Shown here piece after piece: positions 6,612-29,307 of a DNA stretch of 64,000 nt. Both the position numbers and the translations under genes were made by a program. Source of the stretch: Diphasiastrum complanatum (Eukaryota > Streptophyta > Lycopodiopsida > Lycopodiales > Lycopodiaceae); assembly GCA_029204225.1 (NCBI GenBank), contig CM055110.1, positions 40,179,515 through 40,243,514 of the forward strand, read 5' to 3'. Positions within the stretch are counted from its first letter, which is position 1; each line of letters begins with the position of its first letter. The notes under the pieces are model-generated. The model did not search any database. It was not told where the DNA came from and saw nothing but the letters and a program-made list of their open reading frames with translations.

Positions 6612-7394
6612 CTAACTTTTTTAATGTGCCTTACCTAACCTTTTATCACCTGCGTTTACCTAAAATTTTAATTACTTGCTTGCGAGTCTTAAGATTCTTA
6701 TTTCCTCAGAGTTTTATGTGGTGATTTGGATTCTTCCCGATTGGCCACCTTCCTTGCTTATTATACAAGCATGTATGGCTCCTAGAAACTATAAGCTAAG
6801 ACACTCTTATCTTATGATGTAATTGATGCTGCATATTGTTAGACTGAAACTTAATTGCAAAAGGTTATTGATTGAACAAAGAAAATCTTTAAGGCAAACG
6901 TGTACTGATATTGAACCATTCTAATGTTTTGGCTAAATTAGTTTGCTTATCAAGCTGAATTTTCAAAGTGGATAAATGGTTTTGATTTCAACTAGTTCCT
7001 TTGAGATAACCAGTCAAACAATGATCACGAACACCAGCCAAATTGTCAGTATGCTTCTCACCTTTCGAGGTATCGCGTGATGTGATGCAGGATTATCTGG
7101 AAAGAGAAAATCGTAACCTAAAAAAGTGTTTTAGATGAGGCTGATGAAATGTTGAACATGGGGTTCATGGAGGATGTCGAGTTAATCCTTGGTTAGCCCT
7201 TCACAAGTTCATCATTATATATAAATATATATGTGTATATGAATGTATGAGGGGAGAAGGATGCACCATGCTGCATGGGTGCATGTTCCTCCCATGCATT
7301 TTTTTACAAATTTTTTACTAAAAATAACATAATTATGCATGAAGAGAGTATGTATGGCTCCTCCATGCATACATATCCATCCCCCATGGCCCTC

Positions 7395-7478
<84 letters not shown>

Positions 7479-7820
7479 CATGAAGATCCACTCTAATTCT
7501 ACCTTAAGTAAACACACACACACACACACCCCTGAAGATCCACTCTAATTCTTACCTTAAGTAAACACACACACAAGATTTTGGTGCATGCAAATATTAT
7601 GTATGCATAAAAGCAAATTGACGTCGATTGTTCAGAAACGACCTTTTTGTCAGGGAGAATGCCACTAAATGGACTACTTTCCAACATCCCCAAGAACCGG
7701 TCCATTGTCGCTGAACGAAGTCCATTTTTCAGATCGTCTGTTCTGTTCTGTGCTGCACGCCGATACGAACGTCAACACTAAATTGGGCTCCAAATGGTTC
7801 ACACAGCGAAACATGCGTCC
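6612..7820 (+). repeat. Left arm of a large inverted repeat (partner 28475-30226)
   Basis: Read forwards, this arm matches the reverse complement of 28475-30226. Matching landmarks include TTTTTTAATGTGCCTTACC (outer end), the GTTAGACTGAAACTTAATTG stretch, the helicase exon, GGATGCACCATGCTGCATGG, the CT/CA microsatellite with its CATGAAGATCCACT flank, and CACTAAATTGGGCTCCA near the inner end. It lacks about 650 bp present in the right arm at about 29290-29935. The arms differ by scattered substitutions and microsatellite length. Confidence 0.8.
7067..7191 (+). pseudogene. DEAD-box RNA helicase exon fragment (RH7-like), left arm
   Basis: Two frames give DYLERENRNLKK and then, after a small frame change, VLDEADEMLNMGFMEDVEL. 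The second is Walker B (motif II, DEAD) of DEAD-box helicases and most resembles plant nucleolar RH7-type proteins (LDEADEMLRMGF). A GT donor (TTGGTTAGC) follows the last codon, as at a real exon end. The frameshift and the lack of flanking motifs show a captured fragment. The same exon is in the right arm on the opposite strand. Confidence 0.75.
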
Positions 7821-8320
7821 GAACCAAAAACCCTAAACGTAGTGTTGGGATTCTAGGCCCGTCGAGCCAGGAATTGGTTGGATTCAATAAAAAATAGTCA
7901 TAACTTTGGACGAGAGATGTCCACAGGTTTGTGGGCTCAACACGAACCCACAAGACCATTTACAGCTCAATTTTGATGTCGGTTGTTCGGAAATGTCCTT
8001 TCGGTAAGGGGGAATGCCACTAAATGGACTGCTTTCTAACATCCCTGAGAACCAGTCCAGTTTTGCCGAATGAAATCCGTTTTTCAGACCATCTGCACAC
8101 TAAGACATTTTTAGTATAATGTGCAAAACATTTGTTGGGCTTTGCTGAGCTCTGAGCTCAGCCCAAACACACACGCACACACACATCCATAAAGACCCAT
8201 TCTAACCTTTACCCTAAGTACACACACACACACACACAAACACAACACGCACACAAATGCACACACAACACCAACACACACATAGCACATGCACACACAC
8301 ACACTCACACACACACACAA
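7398..8320. repeat. CT/CA microsatellites and a duplicated 125-bp unit
   Basis: (CT)n then (AC)n at 7398-7478, more (CA)n at 7512-7529 and 7564-7575, and a CA-rich stretch at 8219-8312. A unit near 7616-7740 (TTTTTGTCAGGGAGAATGCC, CCACTAAATGGACT, CATTTTTCAGA) recurs at about 7966-8095, and the CA-flanking CATGAAGATCCACTCTAA recurs as CATAAAGACCCATTCTAA near 8187. Open frames through these repeats are low-complexity artefacts. Confidence 0.8.
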
Positions 8321-8429: not shown

Positions 8430-8804
8430 CAACTAGTGTATATATATATATATATTAGAGAGAGACTACAAGGGTGTTTTTAACCCACTCTACTCTCCCT
8501 ATGTCAAACCTAGACCCTACTCTTTGCCTATTCATACATACAATACATATGCACACATGCCTATTTTTTGACTACACATACACATAAGCACACATACAAA
8601 TACACAAGGCTCACACACACATGCACATACGTATACATATACATACACATACACAAGCCTATTTTTTGACTACACATACACACATGCATATTTATACACA
8701 AGCACACATACACATACACATTCAGACACATAATATACACATACACACATATACATACACATACATATACACATACATATAACACAATGATAAAAATAAA
8801 AAGA
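8430..8804. repeat. TA and CACATA-rich low-complexity tract
   Basis: (TA)n at about 8438-8455 is followed by a 200-bp stretch of interspersed ACACATACACAT. No gene is visible. It ends where homology to the second methyltransferase element begins at 8805. Confidence 0.7.
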
Positions 8805-9524
8805 AATGACATGGAGACCCATTCTTTTCGAGTTTTTCAATTTTTTTTAAAAACTAGCCATATTTAAAATGCTTCAAAAAATTATATTGTAATACTAAAA
8901 AAATGTTGTATTTTGCAAAAAAATTAATCATGCTACTAAAATTTTGTTAATAAATTTTGATTAATAACTGCAAATTAGCTTATATGAAATAATAAAAAAA
9001 TTACTAGACACACAACCACTAGAATAATTAAGAAATTTATTTTTACTTATTTAAAACAAAAGTTTTAATTTTTTTTTAATTTAAAAAGTTTTTTAAATGA
9101 CAATTCTTCTATCAAGAAAAATATTTTTAAAATTATAACAAAACTTTAATCAACAATTTTTTAAATTTAAATATTTTTTAAATCTGAACTTATATGTCAA
9201 ATATCTATGTAAGGTCATTGAATATTTAAATATTAAATGATTGTAGATGATTTGTGAAAATATTTAAATCACCCTAAAAAAAAATTTCTATCGCTCTAAA
9301 TCTCTAACAATATTATTATAAAAATACATCAAAAAATGGAAATATTAAAAATCTAATAGTTCATTGCAATTTTAGTTTTGCTAATGACTATTAATGTTAA
9401 AATAAAATCATGGTTAAAATCATTGCTTATATATATATAACAATTTTTTAATGATATGAAATTAAAAAATTGAAATATTCTAAATAATTAAAAAACTAAA
9501 ATATTCTAAATAATTAAAATACTG

Positions 9525-9668: not shown

Positions 9669-10883
9669 CTAGAAATCATCAAGGTCATTTACATCCTTCT
9701 CTTTTTCTTGAGGAGCCATTGTAGACTCAAGTGACACCTCTTCCAAAATTTTATCGACAATTGTAACCACATTATAGTCTTGAACTAGAATATCAACAAA
9801 CCTCCCTGTGTCACCCAGTTTCTTGCCAGTAGGAGACTTTGGTTCCTTGGACAAGGGAATTACCTAGTCCTCGTTATCTAAAATCTTTCCTATCTCAACC
9901 AATTCATCTGGCAAAACTACAAGAAATTTTATTCTCAGTTTTACAAAATCAACTAAATTAGAATCTAAATATGCTACAACAACATGTTTGCCTTTCTAAA
10001 AAACACATGCACTCGTAGTGCCACTACCGCTAAATAAATTCAAAACCCTATCATTTGAGTGAAAAAAATATCAATTAAATGATTTATCAATTGTTGTGGC
10101 TTTTGGTAGGGACAAGCAGAACTCTCATTGGATTCTTGAGTTTCTTTGTCACGACTGGATACTAGAACAAGTTTCCAAAACTTGATAGCCGGAGGTATTG
10201 TAGTGAAGCATCAATTGTCGTCTAGAGAATAATAACCAATGATTATGTATTCTATTTTATTGCAAAGTTGTGCTCCTCTCAAGTTTTTGACATTGGGCTT
10301 GTACCTAACATGGAATATTACAACTAAAATAAATAAAAAATCTCAAAATTTTTAAGCTAAGATGATTGATTATACTAAATTTAAAATAAAACTTTGAATT
10401 AAAATACGAATTTTAAAATTCGTAAATTTAAAAACTTACCACACAACATTTTCTGTTCCCGTATTACAAAAAATTAATAAAGCTTTCTATACTGAAGCTG
10501 ATTGCCAAGAGGAATGAAAAATAACAACTCTCCAAATAGGAGACGTTGTAACTTCGAGAAAACTTTGCATGAAACTATGGATATCAGTGAATTTGAAAGG
10601 AGAATCATCAGTTAATTTGGAAGTCCATATGGTATATCAGCTATGCACAGTGTGTAGGACATTCTCTTTAAAAATTTGGGAGTTTCTCTACAATCACCCT
10701 TCTCAACAGTGTAGAAGCATGGTTAATCATCGACACTTTTGAGGAGGTAAGTCTTTTATGGATCCTCCTCCGCAATGGTCTCACCCCGTCCTAGTCACTT
10801 CTTATTCTTTTTTTTGCTTTCAGCTTCAGAATATGTCTTTTTAATTGCTCTGGAAGGACTTTCTTTCTCTTATCTTCGGGGGA

Positions 10884-10989
10884 CTGAAAAAGAAGAAGCT
10901 ATGCTTAGCATAAGAGATATAAAGTTTAAAACACAATAAAAAAGAAACAATTAATTAATACCTATGCTAAGCATGGGTGAAGTAAATAC
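10884..10989 (-). other. Intron of copy A carrying two ATGCTNAGCAT palindromes
   Basis: On the minus strand it starts GTATTTACTTCACCC and ends CTTCTTCTTTTTCAG, a textbook donor and polypyrimidine-AG acceptor 106 bp apart. Within it lie TATGCTTAGCATA (10900-10912) and CTATGCTAAGCAT (10962-10974). Both are members of the palindrome family that forms arrays at 22 kb and 25 kb. Confidence 0.65.
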
Positions 10990-12700
10990 CATGTCTCTAA
11001 ACAAAATAAAAAAATGGAGTCAAGGATTCATTTCAGCTGCTTAGAGGATAAAGCCTATGGCACTCTTCGAAATCTTGATAGTTTAACCTTGTTACAAGGG
11101 CTTTTTGAACTTTCATAAACAAATTTTGCCTGCATTTAAAAAAGTGTAATAGTTACAAATCCTTCAAAATCATTAAAGTCATTTTATTAAAAAAAGTAAT
11201 GAAAACAAATATTTAAATTATAAATATTACCTCTGAAATTCTTTTCTCATTTTTGCTAGGGAGAGTGGACCATCTACATCTCTAGAAAGAACACTTATTA
11301 TTAGCTCTAAAGAGCTAATCTCTTGCATGTTTTTCCACTCTAATATTCTCATTTATGTAGGGATGGACTTCAGAGTTTGAGTTTTTTGTCTTTAAGGGAC
11401 CCTAGATTGGCCTTTTATTTGAAAAGTATCCCACTTGTCAAAAATTTTATCGACAAGGGCCCATACCTAAAATCAAAAAAGGTTTTAACTATTTAATAAG
11501 CAATTCAAGAAATATTAAAATAAAGTTCAAAATTTTAGTCTAATAATTTTTTTTTATGAAGAGGATAACATGAATTTTGATTAGATCATTCCATGACAAG
11601 CATAGCAAGAAAAATTACCTGGCTACTACGGAAAGCAAGTTGAAAAAAATTATCATATTTTGTAAGGCTCTTTGTAGGATTTTTTGAATCAAATGACGGG
11701 CCTATCTCTTGAACACAAAGTGTCTTAAGCTCCATTTGATTTACATCTCCAGCTTTGGAGATTCTCATATATTCTTTGTGAAAAAACTGGATTATTTGTA
11801 TGACAGTCATCTTCATTGGGTAGTCCTAATCAATATTATGATCCCATGTGAGCAATTTTGCTTCTTCCACTGTTAGGCCAACAAATGCAATGGCACTAAC
11901 AGTTCTGAGAATACTCTTGGGATAATTATTTTCGGGCTTGTAAATTGTGTATGCATCCCCAAGAACAAAAAAATGATATGAATCTAAAACAGGAAAAATT
12001 AAAATTTGCAACCGTTGCATTTTGAGGGATCAACCAATACAACAAAAGGGATTTACTATGGCCTATGTATGATCTTTAAATTTTATTTTTGAATTATGTA
12101 CATGTGTCTCATTAGGTTCTCTTACTTCCATTGGTCTATCTCCTATTATTGGGTCTACATGTGGCTTATCACACTGATCTATATTCAAAATTAGAGTTGT
12201 TTCCCTAAATTTTTTTGTTTTATGAATATTTTCTCTTAATTTGGCAATCTTTTAATTTGTCTTGTAGGGGCCGGATGGAAGCACCAGGTAAAGATAATGA
12301 GAGTTCATTTCCATTTTTTTTGTTTTCAACTTAAGAAATGGATTTATGGCGATGTGTAACCATCGTTTTTGGGCGGAACTTGGGTCTGGTGGGAGAAATA
12401 TTGTGTGATCTTTTTTTTTTTTTGAATGAGGGGCAACTACAATGGCCTCAACATTTTCAGTGGTTGGTTTTGTGACTTGAGCAGTGGTAGAAACAGGCTT
12501 GCAAGGTCTCATAGATACAAATTTAGAACTCCGTAATGAATACACCAGATCTTTTCTCTCAGCAATAGCAGCTAGCACCAGTTTTAAGCATTGCTTCATG
12601 CTCTGGACAAAAACAAGAAACAAGTTCAAAGTATAATGAGCAAATGAATTTATATTGGCTATGCTCATCATAGGACTACTCAATTTTAATAAGAGATCTT

Positions 12701-12803
12701 CTATTTGCAAGTTGCTGGGAATTTTATATTTAGTTAAACACTATGCTAAGCATAGAACACTTCTTAATATATATGAGTGACAACATATTTTATGATTATA
12801 TAC
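12701..12803 (-). other. Intron-like gap in copy A with a 15-bp perfect palindrome
   Basis: On the minus strand CTTTG|GTATATAATC looks like a donor and TTGCAAATAG an acceptor, though the flanking frames do not join cleanly. CTATGCTAAGCATAG at 12741-12755 is a perfect palindrome. The corresponding gap in copy B has CTATGCTTAGCATAG at 24645-24659, so the palindrome's position inside the gene is conserved between copies. Confidence 0.5.
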
Positions 12804-13409
12804 CAAAGTCACAACAAGTTTATCAAAGTAAGTTTTGATGACATCATCTTGGCAGAGTCGAATCTTAATCATAGTCTCGTTCAAAATGAAAATAGGATGA
12901 GACTTATCCGTCTCCTTTACAAAGCCATTTACAAAACCCTCTTCCTCATCCTCATCTGGTTGATTAGCAAGCAATTTTCCTTGAATATGAAATTGTGAAT
13001 CCCCCCTGCTAGGCTTCTCAAAGAGCTTTGTGTTGTTAACTCCTCTAGTGAAGTAGTACATAAATTTTTTCTTGTTTTTCAAAGAGATATCTTGAGGTTT
13101 ACCCAAAATTTGAAAGAAATCCTCGACATTTTGAAGATTAGCACAAAGAAGAGACAATCTGTGGAGAGGAAGATTCTTTAGTAAAATTTCAAACATTACC
13201 TTATTAAAAATACTAAAAACTTAAAAAAGATAAGCAGTTTTTACTAAAAATTATAAATAAAGTAGGCAATTTCTGTTAAATTTAATTAAAAATTCACATG
13301 ATTTACGAGAAATTGAGACCTTGGAAAAGCACATATTTTTGCTAAAATGTCTCACAATTTTTACTTTTAAAAACCTGAGGCTTGCAACAAGGGAGGAATA
13401 CGAGTTCTG

Positions 13410-13428
13410 ACCTATGCTGAGCATAGGT
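13410..13428. repeat. ATGCTGAGCAT palindrome upstream of copy A
   Basis: ACCTATGCTGAGCATAGGT is a 19-bp dyad, odd only at the central base. It lies about 200 bp upstream (minus sense) of the first exon-like piece of copy A, as the arrays do for the other copies. Confidence 0.7.
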
Positions 13429-13802: not shown

Positions 13803-14749
13803 GTATATAGGGTTGGGTAGAGTTTACAATAGCTTCAAATAAGTGTCTCTAGCAGGCATAACATGATAGGCCATCAACAATAAATAGTTACGAGTTTGCA
13901 CCCAGGCCCCATACGAAGCCTAAATTTAAAGCACCTGAAGCCCTCACAGTCCAGCTGCCAGCAGCAGCGAGCAAGGAAGGCAATGCGCACTGTCGTCTAA
14001 TTGCAGTGTACACCGTCACGCCTTCTTCTTGTATATGCGTGTCTCTCTTGTGTGAGTTCAGTCAGAAGATGAATGCACATTGCATCATCAGTGCCAGCTA
14101 GAGAACAACGTCCGGAGTAGACAGAAAGCAGTGAGAACAATTTTACAGCTACTGGATTTACACCAGCCTGCTGGATTTACACAATCATGTCTTTTCTGCA
14201 CTCTAACAATGTGGTTGGAATTAAGCCCGTATCAACATAATGGATGGCTCACGGGGCACGGCCTGTTGCAGCTGATTCCTTGAGTGAAAGAATAATTGCC
14301 TGCGCTGAGTCTTGTGTAAGGTTTAAACATGAAATGCTGTAGCCAGTTATTGATTTAAATGGTGGACATTCCTCTCTCTGTAATTTATGTAGAGGTCACT
14401 GGGTTGAGTAATTCTCAAGAATAGTCAGCAGGACTGAAGCCAAGCCGGTGACGTTTGTCTCTCCAAGATATATCAAGTAAATTTATTTAGTAGGTAAATT
14501 CAATTTTGCAAGATTTTCTGAGTTACGCAAGCTGAAGTTGTATCTCGTCGATGACCTTAATTTTCATACTGAACCGTGGAGCCAGCAATTGTAAGTATAG
14601 CTTCCTCTTTCAGCGCCATTGTAGTAAAACTTTGGTGTAAGATGCGGACGAGATGAGGTTTAAACCTAAAAGTTGCAAGCTTGGCTGGATGCATGATATG
14701 TTTTCGTAGACGTGCATAATCTGCTAGCTCTGCGTTTGTCGTGAAGTGG
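13803..14749. other. Intergenic region upstream of the pectin methylesterase
   Basis: No gene is supported. The region probably contains the pectin methylesterase promoter and 5' UTR. The open frame at 14080-14283 has no recognisable content. I could not assign a TATA box with confidence. Confidence 0.4.
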
Positions 14750-14775
14750 GGAGAGAGAGAGAGAGAGAGAGAGAG
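14750..14775 (+). repeat. (GA)n microsatellite abutting the pectin methylesterase start codon
   Basis: About 13 GA repeats end exactly at the ATG (14776). Upstream of it the frame has only a GTG, which is not a plant start, so the ATG after the repeat is the likely start. GA repeats in 5' leaders are known binding sites for plant BBR/BPC factors; whether this one is used is unknown. Confidence 0.8.
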
Positions 14776-16616
14776 ATGCGTCCGAAAGGGAGTTTTTGTG
14801 TTCTGGCCATTGCCAAAGCAACCATTCTGGGCTACTTAGTCAGCAGTTCTAAACAGCACGAGGTCGAGCAGAAATTAGTCACGCCCGCAACGCCCGCAGA
14901 TTTCAAGGCATCCCTTGCTCAATTGGACAAAGAGTTCATGACATGGATCCACGGGTTTAAACATTCAAAACGTTTGGTGTTTAACACAGCTGCGATTAAA
15001 TTGAGACCATGTAAGGTTATCACAGTTGATAAGAGAGGTGGATTTGGAACAGTACGAACAGTTCAGGCAGCTGTTGATGAAGTCATGGATTTCAATTTCC
15101 AACCTGTTATTATAGTGATCCATGCTGGTATTTACAGGTCTGTAACGGCCCTTGACTATACGTCAGCTTACTGAATCACGATTCACCCCTTTAAGCACTT
15201 GTAGCTCAAACGGATTCAGATTCAAGAGCATCTTTCAAGTTCACTTTACTTTTTGCATGAGATGGATTTTTGTACCCTGCTCCTAACAGAAGACCTTTAT
15301 TATTTGAATCTCAGGGAAAAGGTTGTTGTTCCAAGATTTAAGCCCTTTATCACCTTTCAAGGTGAGGGAAGTCAAAATACCATAATTGAATGGGACGACA
15401 CTGCCAGCAAGCTTGGTCCTGGAGGTCAACCATTAGGCACTTATAACAGCGCTACAGTTGCTATCAACCCCCCATATTTCATTGCAAAGAACATAACCTT
15501 CAGCGTAGGTGGTATTGCTGTTGTAATCATCTACATAAAGTTTAAACACATACATCTAGCTTCAAGGAATTAGTTTTACCTGAGCTGAAATGTCACTTTA
15601 CTTCCTCGAAAATGTAGAAAGAAAGGACAAGCTTGATGCAAACGGTAGCAGATCGTCTTCTGTTGTCAGTTAGTTATTAATCGTAAACCTCTTATAGCTC
15701 TAGTACGTGATATGTATGTGTATGAAAATTCCTAACGTTTTCTCTTTTGACAGAACAATGCCCCAGCACCACCACCAGGAGCTGAAGGACAACAAGCTGT
15801 CGCGCTAAGAATATCAGGCGATACAGCAGCATTTTACGGTTGTCAATTCTTGGGCGCTCAAGACACCCTCTACGATCATCAAGGCCGTCATTTCTTTAGG
15901 GACTGCTATGTCGAGGGCTCCGTGGATTTCATCTTCGGAGATGGCTTATCCATGTACTATGTATGTCTTTGCATCCTTTCATGATCTGATTGATTCTTTG
16001 AATCTTTGTCTTCCTGTAGCTACTCTATGCTTGATGATCCGTATAAATTGTGGTCCTTTAAATCACCTTATTTTCTGCAGAACTGCCAGCTGCATACAAT
16101 CTCCAAGACAATTTATGGAGCAATTACAGCACAGCAACGCAGCGGTTTGCTTGATGATACTGGATTCTCATTCGTAAACTGCCAAGTAACAGGATCTGGA
16201 GCGCTCTATTTGGGGCGTGCCTGGGGAACATTCTCAAGAGTTGTCTATGCCTACACCTACATGGATCCGATCATCATACCTGAAGGATGGTACAACTGGG
16301 GCGATCCAGCTCGGGAGCAGTAAGCCTCTCTTCTACTTCAGAGTTTGGCTCATACATCTCCATAATACTCAAGACACTTATCAGTAAGCGTTGAAGGAAT
16401 TAGTGTGTTGTGTTTAAGACAACACGACTATAACTGCTGAAGAAACCTGATCATCTGCTGTATTGCAGGAGTGTGTTCTACGGGCAATACAATTGCTACG
16501 GCCCAGGAGCCAATTATAAAGGGCGTGCTGCCTGGGCTCGAGATCTCACAAGCCTGGAAGCTCAGCCTTTTCTGACGCTAAGCTTCATTGATGGTGAACA
16601 GTGGCTTCAATATTAA
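14776..16616 (+). CDS. Pectin methylesterase (pectinesterase, CE8), five exons
   Basis: Exons 14776-15137, 15315-15504, 15754-15960, 16081-16319 and 16469-16616 have GT-AG introns and join in frame to 1146 nt (381 aa). The enzyme demethylesterifies homogalacturonan in the cell wall. Family motifs are all present: GIYREKV (118-124), QAV (Q198), QDTLY (Q220, D221), DFIFG (D242) and LGRAW (R299). LGRAW replaces the commoner LGRPW, as in some plant subfamilies. The N-terminus has a short hydrophobic stretch ([16 protein letters not shown]) that could be a signal peptide or anchor. There is no pectinesterase-inhibitor pro-region, so it is the short type. The C-terminus ([32 protein letters not shown]) is intact. 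It looks functional and lies in a transposon-rich block, 0.9 kb upstream of element II. Confidence 0.92.
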
Positions 16617-17501: not shown

Positions 17502-17506
17502 TATTG
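17502..17506. other. Target site duplication, left of element II (TATTG)
   Basis: TATTG precedes the first LTR and recurs at 21157-21161 directly after the second. Five bases is the normal copia duplication. Confidence 0.9.
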
Positions 17507-18208
17507 TGTGAAGAATTGCCAAAAATTGGCAAATCTAGCTTGATAAAAAAACCATGTAGAATAGTGTAAATTGTGTACACAAGTGGGTCCCACACATGTG
17601 AGGCCATGATGCCACATGGGAAACTCATCCTAATGTAGGTTAGGTCAAGTCAAGAGAGTTGGTCATGTCTATTTGGTGGTCATCCCTACTTTATAGGACC
17701 TACACCTAAGTTTAAGGTGAAAATTTGACCAACTAGCTACCTACCAAGCATAACTCTAGGAAATAGACTAGGGTTTCATTTTAGGTCAAGGAGAGTGAGT
17801 TAACTTCCTTATTACATGCTGGAAATCCACCTAACTTCAAGAAGGAAGTCGAATTTGCTATGTATTCCCTCTCTCCATAGTGAGCAGATAGAAAATTTTT
17901 CGAGCTCATTGGCAATATCAAGCTAGTTCACTATGTACATTGAGTTTTTGTGATCCAAATGAAACCAAATCAATTTCTACTTGTTTCTCAGGTTGAAGGC
18001 CGTACTACAGCCTGTAGTACACACGTGTGGGCTCGGATTTCAATGTTTATCAATGCTTTTGATTGTTAATGCTTGTTGTTTGTCAAATTGCCAATCTAGA
18101 TCACCTTTTTTGTGTCTAGTTTTTTGATAGATTGTTAAGCAAGCATCCAATCACTCTTGTGGATCTTTTGTAGATCCATTTATGGTCCTAAAGTATAGTA
18201 CTTTCACA
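17507..18208 (+). repeat. 5' LTR of element II
   Basis: It starts TGTGAAGAATTGCC and ends TTTCACA. It contains CACACATGTG at 17591-17600 and CACACGTGTG at 18020-18029, each beside a short GTAC/CCGTACT context that also occurs in element I. Confidence 0.93.
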
Positions 18209-18221
18209 TGGTATCAGAGCC
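18209..18221 (+). other. Primer binding site, element II
   Basis: TGGTATCAGAGCC, complementary to the 3' end of initiator tRNA-Met, abuts the LTR and is followed by the same AAGTACAAGAG as in element I. Confidence 0.9.
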
Positions 18222-18400
18222 AAGTACAAGAGCATAAGCCATTGATCTAATGCAAATCCATTTTTAGCGAGTTTTGGTGCTAAAAACTAGTATTGAGAGG
18301 GCAAGCTAGAATCTTGATTTTGGTGAGGAGATTTGATCCCAAACTTGGTAGGGGTCCAAATCCGTACTGTCTACATGTGTGGGCATCTCTGAACCTGCAT

Positions 18401-18682
18401 TTAATGCATGGTACTAGAGTTCTTATGCTTAGAAATCAAATTTTGCAAAGCATGAGGAGAATTGAGGAGAGTGCACAGGATTATGTATTCAGAATCAAGT
18501 CTCTAAATAGGGAGTTGGCTTCCATTGGAGAGAAGATTCATGATGGAGAGCTTGTACAAATTATCCTTAATGGTCTAGGAGATGACTTTGCAAATTTGGT
18601 CCAAAGTTTTGCCATCCAAGACACTTTGCCAACTATAGAAAAACTTCACAGTGTAGGATGCGCCATGCAAAATCTAGGATGA
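18401..18682 (+). pseudogene. Truncated gag (capsid, UBN2-type) of element II
   Basis: From about 18401 the translation (TRVLMLRNQIL, ESAQDYVFRIKSLNREL, DGELVQIILNGL, NLVQSFAIQ) aligns with residues about 104-185 of the element III gag. The leader and gag N-terminus are deleted, and no convincing ATG precedes it. The frame ends at 18682 while the nucleocapsid continues in another frame from about 18658, a 25-base overlap. That may be a simple frameshift mutation or a frame change used in expression. Confidence 0.7.
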
Positions 18683-19620
18683 GTTCCTTGTCTTTGCAGG
18701 ATGATGATGAGAAAGCCAATTTCTCATTCAAGGGCAAAAAGAAGACCAATGGAAAGAAGAAGCATCCAAAGGAGGCCAAAGAAGAGGATGATGCATCAAG
18801 CTCAAAGGACAAGTCAAAGCAAAAATGCTTCTTTTGTGGAAAGAAGGGGCATTATGCATCTAAATGCTACAAGAGGCTAAGAGCACAAGTGGAGGAGGAC
18901 AAACAAGGAAACCTTGCAAAGGAGGAGGAGGAGGATGAAGTAGATGTATTCTTGATGGCATCTACATCCTCACCGACAATCAATAGCAATTCAAGAGACA
19001 ATTGGTGGATCGACAGTGGGGCTAGCTCTCACATGTCTTGTGAAAAGGACTTTTTCTCAACCTTACACTCTTTCAATGCTGCTAAAAAGTTTGTCTTTAC
19101 TGCAAATGATGAAGAGTGTAGGATAGATGGTGTTGGCACCATCTCTTTGTGTCTAGAATCCTCAAAATGCATGGATCTAAAAAATGTCCTTTATGTACCA
19201 TCAATCACCAAGAATATGCTTAGTGTTGGTTTACTCTTAGAAAGTGGTTTGGATGTCCACTTTAAGCATGGTGTTTGTTTCATCTTGAAGAATGGTGTTT
19301 GCATTGCAAAGGGATTTAAGAATGGAAGATTGTTTAAGTTGGAAGCTAGTGTTGCTTTTGAAAGAATGAGCTTGGCAAATGAGGAGATCACTCAAAAGGA
19401 GATCTTGACAAAGTGTGATCTTGCTTGCATTGAGGAGGACCATCAAAAGGAGGAAGATATTGAGGATCACCCTCAAAGCATGAGAGTTCCAAGGGAGTCC
19501 TCAATGACAATGTCCGAGTCATCAAATTGCATGCAAATTGTCCATTCAAGTGTGCATCTTGCAAGGGTGGTGAGCATTGGAGAGTCTACTATCTTTGAAT
19601 ACTTTGTTGGAAAGTATTAG
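18658..19620 (+). CDS. Nucleocapsid-protease remnant of element II
   Basis: A 320-residue frame. A Lys/Asp-rich linker leads to a CCHC knuckle, CFFCGKKGHYASKC (about residue 60), then WWIDSGASSHM with the aspartic protease catalytic Asp at residue 119. It continues with the conserved VLYVPSITKNMLSV and GRLFKLEA of the copia GAG-pre region. After about residue 235 it loses similarity to integrase. The protease motif is intact, so it might still be active; the rest of pol is missing. Confidence 0.75.
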   Translation: MRHAKSRMSSLSLQDDDEKANFSFKGKKKTNGKKKHPKEAKEEDDASSSKDKSKQKCFFCGKKGHYASKCYKRLRAQVEEDKQGNLAKEEEEDEVDVFLMASTSSPTINSNSRDNWWIDSGASSHMSCEKDFFSTLHSFNAAKKFVFTANDEECRIDGVGTISLCLESSKCMDLKNVLYVPSITKNMLSVGLLLESGLDVHFKHGVCFILKNGVCIAKGFKNGRLFKLEASVAFERMSLANEEITQKEILTKCDLACIEEDHQKEEDIEDHPQSMRVPRESSMTMSESSNCMQIVHSSVHLARVVSIGESTIFEYFVGKY

Positions 19621-19702
19621 TAGACATGAGGTGACTTGTTTCTTACCATTGAGATCCATGGTGTTTATTACTTCGTATGACAAGACAATGAAATGAGATT
19701 CT

Positions 19703-20398
19703 TTGAAATCTACATTTGTTGTTGATAAAGCAATTTCATTGGATAACTATTTTTGTAATAGTTTGAATAGAGTCATAAAAGATGAAACATCATTTGCTTT
19801 GGAAATCTTTGTGTCCACATGCTTTGTGCATGATCATTCCAATGTAAGGACCAAAGATTATCCTATTTCAATGATAGGAATAATGGTAGTGTTTTGCTCT
19901 TCAAGTAGAGATTGTAGAATCTACTTGTTTTCAACCAAAGAATTTGTCAATGGTGGAAATGTGATCTTTCAAGAGTGGAAGATTTGTAAACTTGAAGAAG
20001 CACCTTTGGATCAACACATTATTCAATTCATTGATGTTTTGGAGTCAAGTCAAGTGGAGGATCAAGCTCAAGACCCGAGGACTCCAAGAAAAATCTTGAG
20101 TATCAAGATGGAGCCATCTAGGCTCATCATATGGATTAAGCAAGACAAGTTGTCTTTGTCAACATTATTTATGCGCTTAATATTTTCAGTGATGTATCTT
20201 CAAGTGCACAAAATGCCTTGGAATCCATGGCTTGGCATGATGTTTAGTTTTGAAGTGTGCTACATGTATATAGACACATTTATGGAACATCTTGTAAGGG
20301 ATCCTCTAAGAGGTGGTGAAAGATCCTTCATGGACATCATTCTCTATTGGAGTCTCAAAAGTTCCTTGTTTGTAGCTGGATTTTTTAGACACTTCTAA
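19703..20398 (+). pseudogene. Integrase C-terminal remnant of element II
   Basis: A 231-codon open frame. Its first half aligns by eye with the element III integrase C-terminus: NYFCN with NYLCN, IFVSTCFVHDHSNVRTK with IFGCTCFVNITLDDRTK, and STKEFVNGGNVIFQE with STKKVVISRDVIFHE. The upstream DDE catalytic core is absent, and the frame then ends without RT. The last 100 residues are unrecognised. This shows element II arose by internal loss from an autonomous copia. Confidence 0.6.
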
Positions 20399-20446
20399 AA
20401 GCTTTCATTCATCTATCAAGAGAGTTGTAAATAGATCAAGCTAAAT

Positions 20447-20454
20447 TTGAGGAG
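20447..20454 (+). other. Polypurine tract, element II
   Basis: TGAGGAG-type purine run directly before the 3' LTR, matching element I. Confidence 0.65.
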
Positions 20455-21156
20455 TGTGAAGAATTGCCAAAAATTGGCAAATCTAGCTTGATAAAAAAAC
20501 CATGTAGAATAGTGTAAATTGTGTACACAAGTGGGTCCCACACATGTGAGGCCATGATGCCACATGGGAAACTCATCCTGATGTAGGTTAGGTCAAGTCA
20601 AGAGAGTTGGTCATGTCTATTTGGTGGTCATCCCTACTTTATAGGACCTACACCTAAGTTTAAGGTGAAAATTTGACCAACTAGCTACCTACCAAGCATA
20701 ACTCTAGGAAATAGACTAGAGTTTCATTTTAGGTCAAGGAGAGTGAGTTAACTTCCTTATTACATGCTGGAAATCCACCTAACTTCAAGAAGGAAGTCGA
20801 ATTTGGTATGTATTCCCTCTCTCCATAGTGAGAAGATAGAAAATTTTTGGAGCTCATTGGCAATCTCAAGCTAGTTCACTATGTACATTGAGTTTTTGTG
20901 ATCCAAATGAAACCAAATCAATTTCTACTTGTTTCTCAGGTTGAAGGCCGTACTACAGCCTGTAGTACACACGTGTGGGCTCGATTTTCAATGTTTATCA
21001 ATGCTTTTGATTGTTAATGCTTGTTGTTTGTCAAATTGCCAATCTAGATCAACTTTTTTGTGTCTAGTTTTTTGATAGATTGTTAAGCAAGCATCCAATC
21101 ACTCTTGTGGATCTTTTGTAGATCCATTTATGGTCCTAAAGTACAGTACTTTCACA
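20455..21156 (+). repeat. 3' LTR of element II
   Basis: Same length (702 bp) as the 5' LTR, with nine substitutions. CACACATGTG lies at 20539-20548 and CACACGTGTG at 20968-20977. It is followed by TATTG, the second copy of the target duplication. Confidence 0.93.
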
Positions 21157-21995: not shown

Positions 21996-22600
21996 GGACC
22001 TATGCTCAACATAGGTCCACTCTTGACTTATGCTCAACATAAGTCCAGAGCGAGCATAGGTTTTCTCTCGACCTATGCTCAGCATAGATTGAGTGAAAAC
22101 CTATGCTGAGCATAGGTTGCTCAAGACTTATGCTCAACATAACTTGAGAGCAGACCTCTGTTGATGCTCTTCTTGACTTATGCTCAGCATAGGTCAAGAA
22201 CAAACGTAGGTTGAGCATAAGTCCTCTCTCGACTTATGCTGAGAATAAATCGAGAGTGAACCTATGCTGAGCATGGGTTCGCTCTTGACTTATGCTCATT
22301 TATGCTCAACATAGGTTTGCACTAGTGAGCATAAGTCCAAAGCGGAAGCATAGGTTCGTCGCTCTCGACTTATCCTAAGTCTAGAGCAAACCTATGCTCA
22401 ACATAGGTCCGCTCTGGACCTATGCTGAGCATAAGTCCAGAGCGGACCGGACCTATGCTCAGCATAAGTCCTCTCTCGACTTATGCTGAGCATAAGTTGA
22501 GAGCGAGAACCTATGTTGAACTTAGGTCCACTCTCGATTTATGCTCAACATAAGTTGGAAGATGACATAGCTGAGCCAACACCCAAACAGACCTATGCTG
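21996..22600. repeat. Array of about 17 ATGCTNAGCAT palindromes (array 1)
   Basis: Dyads centred on GCTNAGC repeat every 28-40 bp over 600 bp. Two types tend to alternate: ACCTATGCTGAGCATAGGT and GACTTATGCTCAGCATAAGTC. Some arms extend to about 14 bp each side (CTCGACTTATGCTGAGCATA and its partner). Spacers are rich in GAGAGCG/CTCTCG. Half-sites and mutated copies are present, commonest as GCTCAAC. Both strands would fold into chains of hairpins. No family I know has this array. Confidence 0.85.
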
Positions 22601-23530: not shown

Positions 23531-23572
23531 GTTGCTTTTCGGCTCAACTCTAAAGAACATGGTGACCAAAAA

Positions 23573-23930
23573 AAGATAAATGACATGACGACCCATTTTT
23601 TGTAATTTTATTTTTTTTTAAAATGTCTATATTCAAAATGCTTTGCAAATTTTATATTATAATGCAAAAAATATATCATTTTTTTGTTAAAAACTAAAAT
23701 CATACTAAAAAAGTTAGATATAGAATTTTGACAACATATTCAATTTTGCACGTATTTTAAATTAATTAATAAAAAACAAAATCTTTAAATATAAAAATAC
23801 TAAAATCAACAACAAAAATTATTTTAGTTATCAATTATTTAGTAACAAATATTTTAAAATTTAAATTTCTTTGTTTGAAATATTTTTTTATGAATGCAAA
23901 ATAAATTCAAATTAATATTCTTTTAAAATT
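23573..23930. other. AT-rich 3' flank of methyltransferase element copy B
   Basis: Starting near AAATGACATGACGACCCATT it parallels 8805 onward, then becomes AT-rich. No gene. It marks a candidate boundary of the repeated unit. Confidence 0.5.
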
Positions 23931-25060
23931 CTAATTTTTCACAATAATAATTTGTACAAATTCAAAAAGATTTATGTAATTTAGATCTATAACACACCCA
24001 CTTTGTTGAGGTCCTTTCGACGGACGAATTATAGAGTCTTCGTCATATGTAGACTTTCTTGTCTCAGCTAATTCGTCTGACAAAACTGATATGAATTTCT
24101 TTCGTATTTTTATAAATTTTACTACACTAGAATCTAATTCTACAACAGCAACATGTTTGCCTTTTTGCACAGCGCATGCGCTTGTAGTGCTACTTCCGCT
24201 AAACAAATCTAACATCCAATCTGCTGGGTGGAAAATTTTTTTAATAATATGATTAATTATTTGTTGTGGCTTTTGATAAGGACAAACCACAGAACCTATC
24301 ATCGAATTTTTCAGTTTTTTTGTGACTGTTGAAAATTGGAACAAATTCCCAAAGCTAGTCAAGCCGGTGGTGTTGTAATGTAGTGTGAGTGGTGGAAACA
24401 ACCTTTTTTTTTTTGGATTTTAAGTCTCCTTGAGCTGGTTGGCCCTTTATTTCAAAAAAATTTCATTTGTCAAAAATTTTATCTACAAGAGCCCACACTT
24501 GAAAAAATAACATTATGAAAACAAAATTATATAATTAACAAATTTTGAAATTTCATTTATTATTTTAAAAAAAAATTAAATCGAACATTGCATGCTAAGC
24601 ATAGTAAAGCAATTATCTAAATTAAAAATTTTTAAACAAACATTCTATGCTTAGCATAGTAAAAAAATAATTTATTCCTTTTAATGTGTTCATATCAATG
24701 TCACAAGGGCTTTGTCAAAATACACTTTAATGGCATTGTCTTTGCAAAGTCAAATCTTAAACATTCTCTCATCCAAAATGAATATCGAACGACTTTTGCC
24801 AAGTTCTTTCACAAGAACATTGACCAAGCTCTCTTGCTCCACATCGTCATCGGGCTGATCAGCAAGGACTCTACCTTGCATTTGAAATGGATCTTAACCT
24901 CTTCTGCTCTTCTCAGCAATATGGATAAATAGTTCATTCAATTTACTGTTATTTACACCTTTTGTAAACTAAAACATGTATTTCGTTTTGTCCTTCAGAG
25001 GAACATCTTGAGCCCGATCTGGCATCCGAAAGGAAATCTTCGACATCCTTAATTTTTCAA
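23931..25060 (-). pseudogene. ParB-like/amino-methyltransferase gene, copy B (internally deleted)
   Basis: The best-preserved part is a 156-codon minus-strand frame (23931-24401) with PYQKPQQIINHII (residues 41-53) and MLDLFSGSSTTSACA (63-77), followed by GKHVAVVELD. In beta-class DNA amino-methyltransferases QKP...II precedes motif I (FxGxG), the AdoMet-binding loop; here the last Gly is Ser. Upstream, VWALVDKIFDK near 24475 and the 24690-25060 part (MQGRVLADQPDDD, FTKGVNNSK) match copy A. The catalytic motif IV and ParB-like region present in A are missing, so this copy is deleted and inactive. Palindromes at 24591 and 24645 lie in the gap equivalent to copy A's intron. Confidence 0.65.
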
Positions 25061-25249: not shown

Positions 25250-25755
25250 TTTCTTTGCTAAGCATAGAAAATTCTTTTATTTTGCATCTATTGCCCATGC
25301 TTAGCATAGAAACCTCTCTTCCTTGTTCCCAAGTCTTATGCTGAGCATAACACCTCTTCAATCTTTAAGTGGCTATGTTATGCTCAACATAAGATATTCT
25401 CTTAATTTCTCTGAAGTTCTATGCTGAGCATAGCGTGCTATCTCACACGTGAATATGTTATGATGAGCTTGCTCGTCCACGATCTATGCTCAACATAACA
25501 TGCGGGCGAGCGAAAGATTAGGAGTTCCTATGCTCAGCATAACATAACCACGTGGAGTGAGAAATCACACTATGTTCAACGTAGAACTAGGGAGAAATTA
25601 AGAGAATATCTTATGTTGAGCATAACATAACCACTTTAAGATTGAAGAGGTGTTATGCTCAACATAAGACATGGGAGCGAGAAACGAAGGTTTCTATACT
25701 GAGCATATATAATAGTTGTAAAATAAAATAATTTTCTATGCTAAGCATAGAATTT
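25250..25755. repeat. Half-kilobase foldback made of ATGCTNAGCAT palindromes (array 3)
   Basis: About 13 palindromes of the ATGCTNAGCAT type, and the whole block is itself an imperfect inverted repeat centred near 25490. For example CACCTCTTCAATCTTTAAGT (25342) is mirrored by ACTTTAAGATTGAAGAGGTG (25632), and AGTTCTATGCTGAGC (25413) by the reverse of TATGTTCAACGTAGAACT (25572). It lies in the space between the divergent copy B and DUF7869-like genes. It could be a MITE-like insertion or a regulatory region. Confidence 0.8.
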
Positions 25756-26101
25756 AAAAGAAATTAAACATGTGTTTTAAGAATATGGCGGCACAACACT
25801 ATGTTGAGCATAAAGAAAAACTTTTAAAGTTTAAAAAATTACAAATATTACTTGGACAAGAAGTGGATTGCTGATAGCTATGCGCGAGATTATAGAAGGT
25901 CATCAAATGAATGATTCTATCGCTCTGACGACAATCTTGAACGCAAATTCACAAATGAGGTGCCATGTCTTACTCTTGAGGTCCGCAAGTAAAAAAAATT
26001 TGACCTTCAAACTTTAATGGGCCCCCATTTTAATACGCGACCAACTTTTTTCTTCACGACCAACTTGTTCGACAACCAAACGAACTCGTGTCAAATATAC
26101 C

Positions 26102-26157: not shown

Positions 26158-26401
26158 TAACATTTAAAAACAATCTTTTGCAGTTGGAAATTATCTTTGT
26201 TATTGTTGATTTTATGTTAAATGCGTTCTTTACAAATTTCAATGTGTAGTTCTATTGATGTTGGCATAGTCTGTTTAACTCTTATTATGACTAGCATAGC
26301 ATAATGTAAAATTTTTGTTTGTTGTGTTAATTTTACGTTTATATTTTTATTTTTGTTTATGCTTGGCATAGGACTAGAATCAAAAAATTTAAATTTTTGC
26401 A

Positions 26402-28490
26402 ATGGCAAGTAGTTCTTCTTCTTCTATTCTTATAGTTGTTACTCAGTACGTAGCCACATCTAAGTCATCCTCCTCTGATATTCCTAATAAAAGTTACTAT
26501 TATGAAACCACTCCTTCAAGTTCTCATCCTAATACTCTTTGTGTTTCCCCGTCAACAACATCATCTGAGATTTCTCATTTAACTACTTTTCAGAAAATGA
26601 GACCTTTGACACAACTTGTTACAGACAGTTTGCTCGACATGCGAGTTGTTAAAATCTGCCAAACTAGCATAGACCAATGATGAGAAAGGTAAAAATTAAT
26701 TAACTTTTAGTACTTTAAAAAATTTATTTTTTTGTTAATTTTTTAGTTTTCAAATTAGTAATGTTATGAAATTATCAGAATTTTATTGAATATTTAAATT
26801 GTTAGATTTTGTAGTGGATGCTGCAAAAGCGCTTCAAGTGCACAGAGATCAACAAACAATAGAAAGACAAAAATTAACAAAACATCAAAAGAAATGCCTA
26901 GAATTTTCACAAAAGTATTTTGGCCTTGTCATCAATGACATGGATCAAAAGAAAACGATGCTACCTCATCTTGTTAGAGTGCCAAAAAATTTGAACGAGA
27001 CAGATTTTATTCACGTTCATCTCGTTGGAACACTTGTGTTTAATGGCACATTGAATGTTCGAAATGATCCAAATTTGACCATCACCATTGTATAAAAGAT
27101 AATTTGCGAATTTGGTGATAATTTTCAAGAAATACTGTATTTGCAACTGGACAACACCGCTAGGGAAAATAAAAATCAAACTGTACTAGCTTACTTGTCC
27201 ATGTTGGTAGAGAAAAAAAAATTCAAAAAAAATAAAAATAGGATTTTTGTTGATGGGTCATACCCATGATCAAATTGATCAAATGTTTAGTTGTTTTTCC
27301 AAAAGACTAAGACGCAAGAAGGTATTTTCTTTACTAGTGCTTCAGAGCATTGTTGAAGAGCCATACGTGCCAAAGCCAACTGTGTTGTTAATTAGGCATA
27401 CATATGATTTTCGTGAATATATTAAGGCATCTAATGAAACAAGTCGTTGTGTTGCTACCATTAATAATATTAGCTTTCAACATTAGTTCAAAATCAAATG
27501 TAATGAAACTGGCATCACATTGCTATGGGGCAAACAATTTTCAAGTTCAATTTCATGGTTACTTGTTGAAGGAGTACGGTTTTTGCTCAATATAGCTTGC
27601 TGCATTGTCTCTCTTGAAGTCCATGCTAGAAGAACAAAAAGCACAAACAGAGCATTGTGAGATTGACCTATTTGTCTCAGTAAATTTTTTGGATTCAAGT
27701 ATTCAAGCAGCTTATCAATTTTTTGATAAATTTGATCAACATTGGTAGATGGACTTTTTCGAGGAACAAAAAATTAGTTTGCTCAATCTTGAACACGCAT
27801 CAACAACTGAAGAATTTCAATGACTTCATAAATTAGGAACTTTAACTACAATTGTCGAACCTTCAAATCTACCCCGAGATAATGATTTCTTGGAGCTTTT
27901 GAAAGGCGAGGAACGTGAAATTTATTTGGGCTCAAGGAAGAATAGGCAAAGTGTAAAAGTTGCAAAAATGAAGTGGCATGGTGATATGAATGAAATCCAA
28001 ATTGGAAGCCTTGTTGCACTTCTAGCTTTAGAAAACATGTCCATTGGTTGCACACCACTTCAACAAATGCTTTTTTGGGAAGGTATGATCTTGAAATGTT
28101 GTAAGTAGATCCAAAGGGTAAGAGAAAACGATTGCCAAAGAACCAACCGAAGATTAGTGATTTGAATTTACAAGATGTAAATGTTTTGGCTTTTAATTTT
28201 GAGTTGACAATGATCAATCATCTACGAGGTCAACCATAGCCATACTGAATGAACGACTTACATTAATGAGACAATCATTGTCATCAACTCGTCAACAACA
28301 GAGAAAAGCTGACTTACAAGGTTTTTTATCAACATTGGACGCGGATTCTGAAGATGATATGCTAGTCGACTCTGATTAAGAAGACGGGTCTTCCACCTCA
28401 TCGGTTGAAAACGAGAGTGTTCAAAATATGTCAAGTTCCAAATTGAGAGGCATCAATGAAAATTCCTTTCAGACGCACGTTTCGCTATGA
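26402..28490 (+). pseudogene. DUF7869-like gene, frameshifted, divergent to copy B
   Basis: The first part (26402-26680) is a Ser-rich N-terminus. A likely intron (GTAAAAATT at about 26691 to TTGTTAG near 26805) leads to KLTKHQKKCLEFS, DFIHVHLVGTLVFNGTL, a stop, then YLQLDNTARENKNQTVLAYL, a frameshift in an A-run near 27220, GHTHDQIDQMFSCFSKRLRR (27256) and PKPTVLLIRHTYDF. LDNxxxENKN and GHTHxxIDQxFS are the signature of proteins I know as DUF7869, repeated in plant, oomycete and animal genomes; a nuclease or transposase role is suspected but I cannot show it. The C-terminal part is acidic (LDADSEDDMLVDSD). Stops and frameshifts make this a pseudogene. It ends next to the right inverted-repeat arm. 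Confidence 0.6.
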
Positions 28491-28994
28491 GTACTGTGGA
28501 GCCCAATTTAGTGTTGACGTTTGTATCGGCATGCAGCATAGAACGGAACAGACGGTTTGAAAAACGGACTTCATTTAGCAACAATGGACCGGTTCTTGGG
28601 GATGCTGGAAAGTAGTCCATTTAGTGGCATTCTCCCCGACAAAAAGGTCATTTCTGAACAAACGACGTCAATTGCTTTGATGCATACATAATATTTGCAT
28701 GCACCAAAATCTTGTATGTGTGTGTGTGTGTGTTTACTTAAGATAAGGATTACAGTGGGTCTTCATGGGTGTGTGTGTGTGTGTGAGGTGAGGGCCATGG
28801 GGGATGGATATGTATGCATGGAGGAGCCATACATACTCTCTTCATGCATAATTATGTTATTTTTAATAAAACAATTGTAAAAAAATGCATGGGAGGAACA
28901 TGCACCCATGCAGCATGGTGCATCCTCTCCCCCCCCCCCCAATAGATTCATATACACATATATATTTATATATAATGATGAACTTGTGAAGGGC

Positions 28995-29123
28995 TAACCA
29001 AGGATTAACTCGACATCCTCCATGAACCCCATGTTCAACATTTCATCAGTCTCATCTAGAACACTTTTTTAGGTTAAGATTTTCTCTTTCCAGATGATCC
29101 TGCATCACATCACGCGATACCTC
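28995..29123 (-). pseudogene. DEAD-box RNA helicase exon fragment, right arm
   Basis: The counterpart of 7067-7191 on the minus strand. Motif II reads LDETDEML instead of LDEADEML, so this copy has lost the DEAD Ala. Same GT donor and same flanks as the left copy. Confidence 0.75.
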
Positions 29124-29307
29124 GAAAGGTGAGAAGCATACTGACAATTTGGCTGGTGTTCGTGATCATTGTTCAACTGGTTATCTCAAAGAAACCAGTT
29201 GAAATCAAAACCATTCACCCACTTTGAAAATTCAGATTGATAAGCAAACTAATTTAGCCAAAACATTAGGATGGTTCAACAGCAATTGCAAACAAAACAA
29301 TTTGTTA

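What the first reader, a model, noticed from the sequence alone, without database searches (positions are those of the whole stretch)
9669..13196. A eukaryotic mobile-gene family joining a ParB-like domain to a beta-class DNA amino-methyltransferase
The minus strand carries, in order, a ParB/sulfiredoxin-like stretch (VLDSYHFFVLGDAY ... TVEEAKLLTWDHN), motif IV (ADIPYG), VVIFHSSW, EYIIIGYY, QKPQQLINHLI and motif I (LFSGSGTT). That order is beta-class N6-A/N4-C methyltransferase, an enzyme type of bacteria and phage, here with introns in a plant genome and in at least two copies. Cytosine methyltransferases in retroelements are known; I know of no described plant element with this architecture. 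Stops make this copy inactive; the ParB assignment is the weaker half.
Basis: partly seen in the sequence, partly recalled or inferred. Interest (0 to 1): 0.92.

Follow-up and report, generated by a model that had tools for sequence, protein, structure and literature searches.

The report
Plant transposon carrying its own DNA-methylase
A family of jumping genes in a plant carries a bacterial-type DNA-methylating enzyme beside its probable transposase, along with arrays of palindromes that the element's own proteins may bind; the same enzyme pairing was already known from jumping genes of algae.

Summary
The reading holds in the main. The pieces at 9669-13196 are a decayed beta-class amino-methyltransferase gene: a better copy in the same genome (L028) matches PF01555 over positions 3-217 of 221 (E 3.4e-16), and the nearest solved relatives are CcrM, RsrI and MboIIA. 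A second copy lies at about 23,556-25,046. The genome gives 1605 candidates (150 scored, all 150 over the cut-off).

The gene sits head-to-head with a DUF7869 gene in an element of about 8.8 kb with sharp ends, an 11-bp terminal repeat and 4-bp target duplications (exact in 3 of 6 copies). These features fit Sola transposons. The same gene pair lies on contigs probably from the fern Azolla.

The ParB half rests on motifs alone: every profile and fold search failed.

The architecture is in print for algal transposons, including Sola1 of Ectocarpus (PMC12477816). Not met in my few literature searches: an abundant plant family, and phased arrays of the palindrome ATGC-N3-GCAT beside the methylase gene in both lineages. 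That the protein binds and methylates its own array is inference.

The parts
12801..13129 (-). copy 1, exon e1 (N-terminal part, domain unknown)
   Evidence: tblastn homologue of e1 in copy 2 and in L010, L011, L013, L016, L028; no Pfam family above its cut-off
12324..12602 (-). copy 1, exon e2 (linker rich in basic residues)
   Evidence: tblastn matches in other copies
11619..12140 (-). copy 1, exon e3: ParB/Srx-like stretch (assignment by motif only)
   Evidence: conserved in the 7 copies aligned and at 41-42% identity in L031-L038; no profile hit
11230..11466 (-). copy 1, exon e4
11036..11128 (-). copy 1, exon e5
10490..10883 (-). copy 1, exon e6 with motif IV (DIPYG)
   Evidence: L028 homologue in PF01555
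9669..10303 (-). copy 1, exon e7 with motif I (LFSGSGTT) and the C-terminus
8781..8820 (-). copy 1, end of the element on the methylase side
   Evidence: homology with other copies stops here
24693..25046 (-). copy 2, exon e1
24439..24498 (-). copy 2, fragment of exon e4 (e2, e3, e5 and e6 gave no match in this copy)
23931..24401 (-). copy 2, exon e7 as an open frame of 156 aa with motif I
   Evidence: PF01555 E 2.8e-10
23556..23605 (-). copy 2, end of the element on the methylase side (..GGTCACCATGTT)
   Evidence: sharp end shared with L022, L024, L028 and L041, L042, L043; a pattern for it has 314 places in the genome, reversed control 0
25254..25812 (.). copy 2, array of TATGCTNAGCATA palindromes, mostly 41-42 nt or twice that apart, upstream of e1
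   Evidence: 34 sites with up to 1 mismatch in the window, 0.18 expected; spacing
10900..13425 (.). copy 1, scattered copies of the palindrome (10900, 10963, 12742, 13413), the first three between exons
26393..28471 (+). copy 2, divergent DUF7869 gene (broken), probable transposase gene; homology to other copies ends near 28471
   Evidence: PF25273 E 2.5e-17 (typed piece); frames; boundary

Best explanation
This is a degraded copy of an abundant, roughly 8.8-kb terminal-inverted-repeat DNA transposon of the Sola kind. It carries two divergent genes. One encodes a DUF7869 protein, most likely the transposase (inferred). The other encodes an accessory protein with a ParB-like stretch and a beta-class methyltransferase domain closest to N6-adenine enzymes. 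Beside the divergent promoter, in what looks like the first intron of the methylase gene, lies an array of 2 to about 13 palindromes (core ATGC-N3-GCAT) set near whole turns of the helix. I think the accessory protein, or the transposase, binds this array side by side and the methylase marks adenines of the element's own DNA. That mark would control the divergent promoter and tell the element's own DNA from host DNA, for example to counter silencing or to time transposition. Shown: gene order, methyltransferase family, ends, target duplications, copy number, arrays and spacing. Inferred: transposase identity, intron 1, array binding, adenine as the target, and the benefit to the element.
For: Methyltransferase: PF01555 3.4e-16 over 3-217/221; CcrM, RsrI, MboIIA nearest; motif IV begins with D. 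Mobility: left end 832 places against 0 for the reversed pattern, right end 314 against 0, 4-bp duplication exact in 3 of 6 paired copies and off by one base in 2 more, 1605 and 2954 candidates for the two genes, 150 of each scored. Gene pair: DUF7869 upstream on the opposite strand in 7 of 20 genome loci (two of them, L010 and L011, near-identical) and in copy 2, and in L031, L034, L035, L036, L037 of 8 fern-type loci. Arrays: 5717 places in the genome against 0, core identity 1223/1270 against spacer 2962/3543, spacings near multiples of 10.4 nt in both lineages, corresponding place and shared ATGC-N3-GCAT core in the fern-type elements. Sola definition: DDD transposase, 4-bp duplications, 11-bp or longer repeats, mostly 2-9 kb (PMC10741241, passage); ParB-like plus methyltransferase in Sola1-1_Ec32 (PMC12477816).
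Against: No ParB profile matched by any method, and the fold model was too poor to help (pLDDT 40.9 overall; Foldseek nothing at E 0.001 or better). The DUF7869 model was useless (pLDDT 34.1), so the transposase role is not shown. The shared four-base half-site is short; by my own estimate, chance could give it at about 1-2%. The array-conservation figure is biased in its favour, because cores were picked as intact in the reference copy. The array units are partly duplicates of one another, so the spacing p-values are too small, and some spacings (34, 66, 80 nt) do not fit. 4 of 20 genome loci and 2 of 8 fern-type loci show no site. One paired copy (C5) shows no duplication. No methylation data exist here.
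Confidence: 0.55

Rival explanations
1. The palindrome array is the transposase's binding site or a promoter element for DUF7869 alone, and the methylase acts elsewhere, for example genome-wide or against host restriction or silencing.
For: The array lies between the two genes; transposases commonly bind internal repeats (general knowledge).
Against: In L034 and L037 the array lies behind the mini-exon that I read as exon 1 of the methylase gene, and further palindromes lie between later exons of the methylase gene.
Confidence: 0.25
2. The methyltransferase gene is cargo with no role in transposition, kept only because it travels with the element.
For: 17 of 20 sampled genome loci have stops in the matched pieces.
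Against: The same gene pair in the same orientation in two distant lineages at 41-42% identity over e3, with long open frames in 6 of 8 fern-type loci, and similar proteins in algal transposons, argue for retention by selection.
Confidence: 0.12
3. It belongs to another DNA transposon superfamily (for example KDZ or EnSpm), not to Sola.
For: [quoted passage not shown] the passages do not say whether the two coincide). DUF7869 was not compared with any Sola transposase.
Against: 4-bp duplications, an 11-bp repeat and 8.8 kb fit the Sola description.
Confidence: 0.3
4. Ordinary decayed host gene or contamination, not a mobile element.
For: Copy 1 is broken and lies beside a host pectinesterase-like gene (named by eye).
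Against: Hundreds of dispersed places with shared ends, and target duplications.
Confidence: 0.02

Closest known systems
Sola1-1_Ec32 of the brown alga Ectocarpus (PMC12477816, passages read)
   Same: ParB-like plus DNA methyltransferase (4mC or 6mA) gene on the strand opposite the transposase, in a DNA transposon
   Different: Other lineage; 21.5 kb against about 8.8 kb; sequences not compared because they are not in the tools; palindrome arrays not mentioned in the passages I read
[quoted passage not shown] known to me only through the passage; Petroll 2025 not held; Iyer 2011 not looked up)
   Same: Domain pair as accessory gene
   Different: Host lineage; details not seen
[quoted passage not shown]
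   Same: ParB domain fused to an adenine methylase
   Different: Bacterial; the passage says that its ParB part nicks DNA non-specifically; no transposon or introns are mentioned there
Bdelloid N4-cytosine methyltransferase (PMC8885841, title and start of abstract in a search listing); Marchantia DN4MT1 (recalled)
   Same: Bacterial-type amino-methyltransferase acquired by a eukaryote
   Different: As I recall these are domesticated host genes with an SPPY-type motif IV; here the gene is part of a transposon and motif IV is DIPY
KDZ transposons with TET/JBP genes in fungi (Iyer 2014, seen only as a citation; content recalled)
   Same: DNA transposon carrying a DNA-base-modifying enzyme
   Different: Oxidase and not methylase; other transposase family

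Membership tests
N6_N4_Mtase (PF01555), beta class | Profile match over the curated cut-off | tested here: met
   60.3 bits against 26.7 for L028 e6+e7 joined; 41 bits for copy 2. Pieces of copy 1 alone: no hit; fern-type e6 alone (L032): no hit
N6_N4_Mtase (PF01555), beta class | Motif IV before motif I | tested here: met
   DIPYG in e6, LFSGSGTT in e7
N6_N4_Mtase (PF01555), beta class | Adenine rather than cytosine as target | tested here: inconclusive
   Nearest solved relatives are adenine enzymes (for CcrM and RsrI this is recalled) and motif IV begins with D; no activity data
ParB/sulfiredoxin superfamily | Profile or fold match | tested here: not met
   Pfam (only DUF6551 at E 0.087 for L032), PF02195 in own genome 0, PHROGs only an unknown family at E 0.25, PDB, hhalign probability 0.1%, Foldseek
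ParB/sulfiredoxin superfamily | Order strand, glycine loop, helix, strand, helix with conserved motifs | tested here: inconclusive
   Low-confidence model has E328-331 E352-356 H361-370 H374-379 E383-385 H390-396; hhalign pairs LTVEEAKLLAWDHN with LSDEEAMQLSLIEN of a bacterial ParB
Sola DNA transposons | 4-bp target site duplication | tested here: met
   Exact in 3 of 6 copies (TTCC, ATGT, TATA), one mismatch in 2, none in 1
Sola DNA transposons | Terminal inverted repeats of 11 bp or more, size mostly 2-9 kb | tested here: met
   AACACRATGAC against AACATGATGAC, 1-2 mismatches in 11; L028 element spans 8794 bp
Sola DNA transposons | DDD transposase of the Sola type | tested here: inconclusive
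   DUF7869 found; model pLDDT 34.1; no Sola reference sequence available
Cytosine-methyltransferase retroelements | Reverse transcriptase and 5mC methyltransferase in one element | tested here: not met
   No such family in the scanned pieces of both genes; the element has terminal inverted repeats and 4-bp duplications. L028 was not scanned end to end

The most novel reading that the evidence does not exclude
Seed-free vascular plants host a transposon lineage with a complete self-marking system: an element-encoded DNA amino-methyltransferase that reads a helically phased array of ATGC-N3-GCAT palindromes in its own first intron and writes a non-5mC mark there. If so, plants would have 6mA or 4mC as a selfish-element mark, separate from their 5mC machinery, at thousands of defined sites.
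Probability: 0.33. Interest if true: 0.87.

Novelty: new variant of a known kind. Interest (0 to 1): 0.64.

Why it matters
Whether land plants make real 6mA or 4mC in nuclear DNA is disputed (my knowledge of the field). A transposon that brings its own methylase and a defined array names exact sites (5717 places in one genome) where native long reads can settle the matter. It also extends a pattern reported for algae into land plants at high copy number.

Tried and rejected
Inverted repeats at 8008-8242 and 28549-28785 looked like the element's ends but belong to an unrelated repeat also present at 7513-7823: rejected. A viral origin: no relative in IMG/VR with the methylase alignment (22 pattern matches, none confirmed). 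Phage relatives of the methylase are remote (48 records; 21-29% identity in the 20 rows listed); the ParB-like part has only matches at E 2 or worse. A bacterial ParB of the same MAG as a bridge: hhalign not significant, and the ParA control scored slightly higher. Fold models of both proteins were too poor. PF02195 in the own genome: nothing. ERR2144891 was not found in the Azolla metagenome paper. Host name: contig lengths (seen for part of the contigs; C23 reaches past 40.9 Mb; C24 has 10.9 Mb) suggest 23 chromosomes, and an rbcL-like fragment reads FRMTPQPGVPPEEAG; this made me think of the lycophyte Diphasiastrum (n=23), but that is recall and not tested. Overlap of the two best lists gave only 3 close pairs of 150 x 150, one of them in the same orientation; both lists are cut, so this is weak either way.

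Full report
What is there. tblastn of the pieces against 20 further loci, which I picked from the 150 scored PF01555 places of the same genome (favouring long open frames, so not a random sample), shows a gene of seven matched pieces e1 to e7 with introns; e7 matches in 20 of 20. Three of the 20 carry all seven pieces (L013, L016, L028) and 17 of 20 carry at least one stop in the matched pieces. The most complete copy, L028, matches PF01555 over positions 3-217 of 221 at 3.4e-16 when its e6 and e7 are joined. The family profile finds CcrM (7e-11), RsrI (1e-9) and MboIIA (3e-8) among solved structures. Motif IV (DIPYG) precedes motif I (DLFSGSGTT), as in the beta class.

The mobile element. In 7 of the 20 loci (L010 and L011 are near-identical), and in copy 2 of this window, a DUF7869 gene lies upstream on the opposite strand (Pfam 2.5e-17 for copy 2). 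In the other 13 loci no such match lies in the 10 kb fetched. DUF7869 has 2954 candidate places, 150 scored. Comparing copies gave a sharp end on the methylase side..GGTCAYCATGTT (L022, L024, L028 and copy 2; L041, L042, L043; variants in L012 and copy 1); L013 and L019 break off before it. The end on the DUF7869 side, AACACRATGACATTTGTTTTGGGAC.., is shared by L028, L016 and L013. The ends form an imperfect inverted repeat of about 11 bp. The left end occurs 832 times with up to 3 mismatches (reversed-pattern control 0); the right end 91 times, or 314 times with a looser pattern (control 0). Of six copies with both ends, three have exact 4-bp target duplications (TTCC in L028; ATGT and TATA), two differ by one base, and one, a 1.5-kb copy, shows none. 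The L028 element is 8794 bp long. In this window copy 1 shows no DUF7869 match and copy 2 is cut near 28471 by an unrelated repeat.

Relatives elsewhere. The e3 alignment finds eight loci in the bacterial and archaeal genome collection, all in one MAG labelled Trichormus. They show the same exon pieces split by what look like introns, and five bear the DUF7869 gene, a family found in none of 14 control genomes; L034 also carries a retrotransposon-like fragment (by eye). I therefore take them as contamination from the fern host Azolla; the symbiosis is recalled, and the run accession was not found in the Azolla metagenome paper (passages). Six of the eight (L032 to L037) have a first-part open frame of 562-594 aa, counted stop to stop; L031 has a shorter one and L038 has stops. 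The head-to-head order holds wherever the contig is long enough (L031, L034, L035, L036, L037; the other three begin close to the gene). That their C-terminal part is the same methylase rests on tblastn with e6 and e7; the e6 exon of L032 alone had no PF01555 hit. Their methylase-side ends are sharp too..TGTT in 5 of 6, of which CRTGTT in 4, like the ..CATGTT of the window's genome.

The ParB question. The stretch reads YFVIGGSHSAEARRQL..GLTVEEAKLLAWDHN in the fern-type copies, close in look to ParB. But no profile agrees: Pfam, PF02195 over the genome, PHROGs, PDB by profile, hhalign against a bacterial ParB (probability 0.1%, though with the N-terminal part alone it pairs the expected motif; the ParA control scored 0.2%). 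An AlphaFold model of the fern protein has mean pLDDT 40.9; the region concerned (about 50-72) has the order strand, strand, helix, helix, strand, helix expected of ParB, yet Foldseek found nothing. I keep ParB-like as a label from motifs and from the published algal proteins, not as a shown membership.

The arrays. The window holds 34 sites of TATGCTNAGCATA with up to one mismatch, 0.18 expected, and 21 of ATGCNNNGCAT, 1.09 expected. In other copies they form arrays in front of e1, mostly 41-42 nt apart. A donor-like TTGACG|GTAAGATT stands before the array in all five copies aligned, and an acceptor-like TTTGCAG after it in L028 only, so the array may lie in intron 1 of the methylase gene; no transcript was seen. 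Across these five copies the core is identical at 1223 of 1270 compared positions, the spacers at 2962 of 3543 and the central base at 72 of 106. Because cores were chosen as intact in the reference copy, this overstates constraint; halving the spacer divergence as a rough correction (my own reckoning) still leaves the core about twice as conserved. The genome has 5717 places of CCTATGCTNAGCATAGG with up to one mismatch, the reversed pattern none. The fern-type elements have, behind a mini-exon MEKR.S.KRPAR|GT that I read by eye in L034 and L037, arrays of GGAAGTCGATGC-NNN-GCATCGACTTCC, ten units in L036. The two palindromes share ATGC-N3-GCAT. Spacings cluster near whole helical turns in both lineages: 40-42 and 83-84 nt in the window's genome, 50-52 and 41 nt in the fern type. 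The p-values there are too small, because units were copied from one another, and spacings such as 34, 66 and 80 nt do not fit. Four of the 20 genome loci (L015, L019, L021, L024) and two of the eight fern-type loci (L031, L033) show no site.

How it may work. Palindromes at whole helical turns on one face of the DNA suggest side-by-side binding of a dimeric protein made by the element. The methylase would then mark adenines in or near these sites. Such a mark could set the balance of the two divergent genes, time transposition, or oppose silencing. None of these steps is shown. The suggestion in print for the algal proteins is the same in outline: accessory proteins that bind and modify their own transposon (PMC12477816, passage).

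What is known. [quoted passage not shown] Petroll 2025, not held). PMC10741241 gives Sola as DDD transposase, 4-bp duplications, repeats from 11 bp, mostly 2-9 kb, found in the moss Physcomitrella and not common in flowering plants (passage). The element fits these measures. So the kind is known. I found no report of it in vascular plants, nor of the arrays, in a few narrow searches of the open-licence library; most subscription papers are not in it.

Verdict. A real, abundant DNA transposon family with an accessory bacterial-type methylase: confident. Sola membership: likely. ParB: plausible, unproved. Self-marking through the arrays: open and directly testable.

Noticed in passing
21997-22560: A second dense array of the same palindrome lies outside copy 2, beyond its methylase-side end at 23556, with irregular spacing. 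It may be a remnant of another element; unexplained.
   Followed up: partly
17506-20753: Probable young Copia-like LTR element: two 300-nt repeats 99% identical around an ORF with a zinc knuckle.
   Followed up: no
14728-16600: Plus strand: pieces of a pectinesterase-like host gene next to copy 1 (named by eye).
   Followed up: no
7000-7823 and 28468-29190: An unrelated repeat, 88-96% alike in inverted orientation, that cuts off the DUF7869 end of copy 2.
   Followed up: partly
L031-L038: A cyanobacterial MAG in the genome collection carries eukaryotic transposon contigs, probably from the fern host Azolla: a contamination worth flagging.
   Followed up: partly
G000:C5:69073715-69075200: A 1.5-kb copy with both ends of the element: probably a non-autonomous deletion derivative.
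   Followed up: partly
L044: An rbcL-like fragment of 75 aa on contig C9, 85% identical to the angiosperm query: probably plastid DNA transferred to the nucleus.
   Followed up: partly
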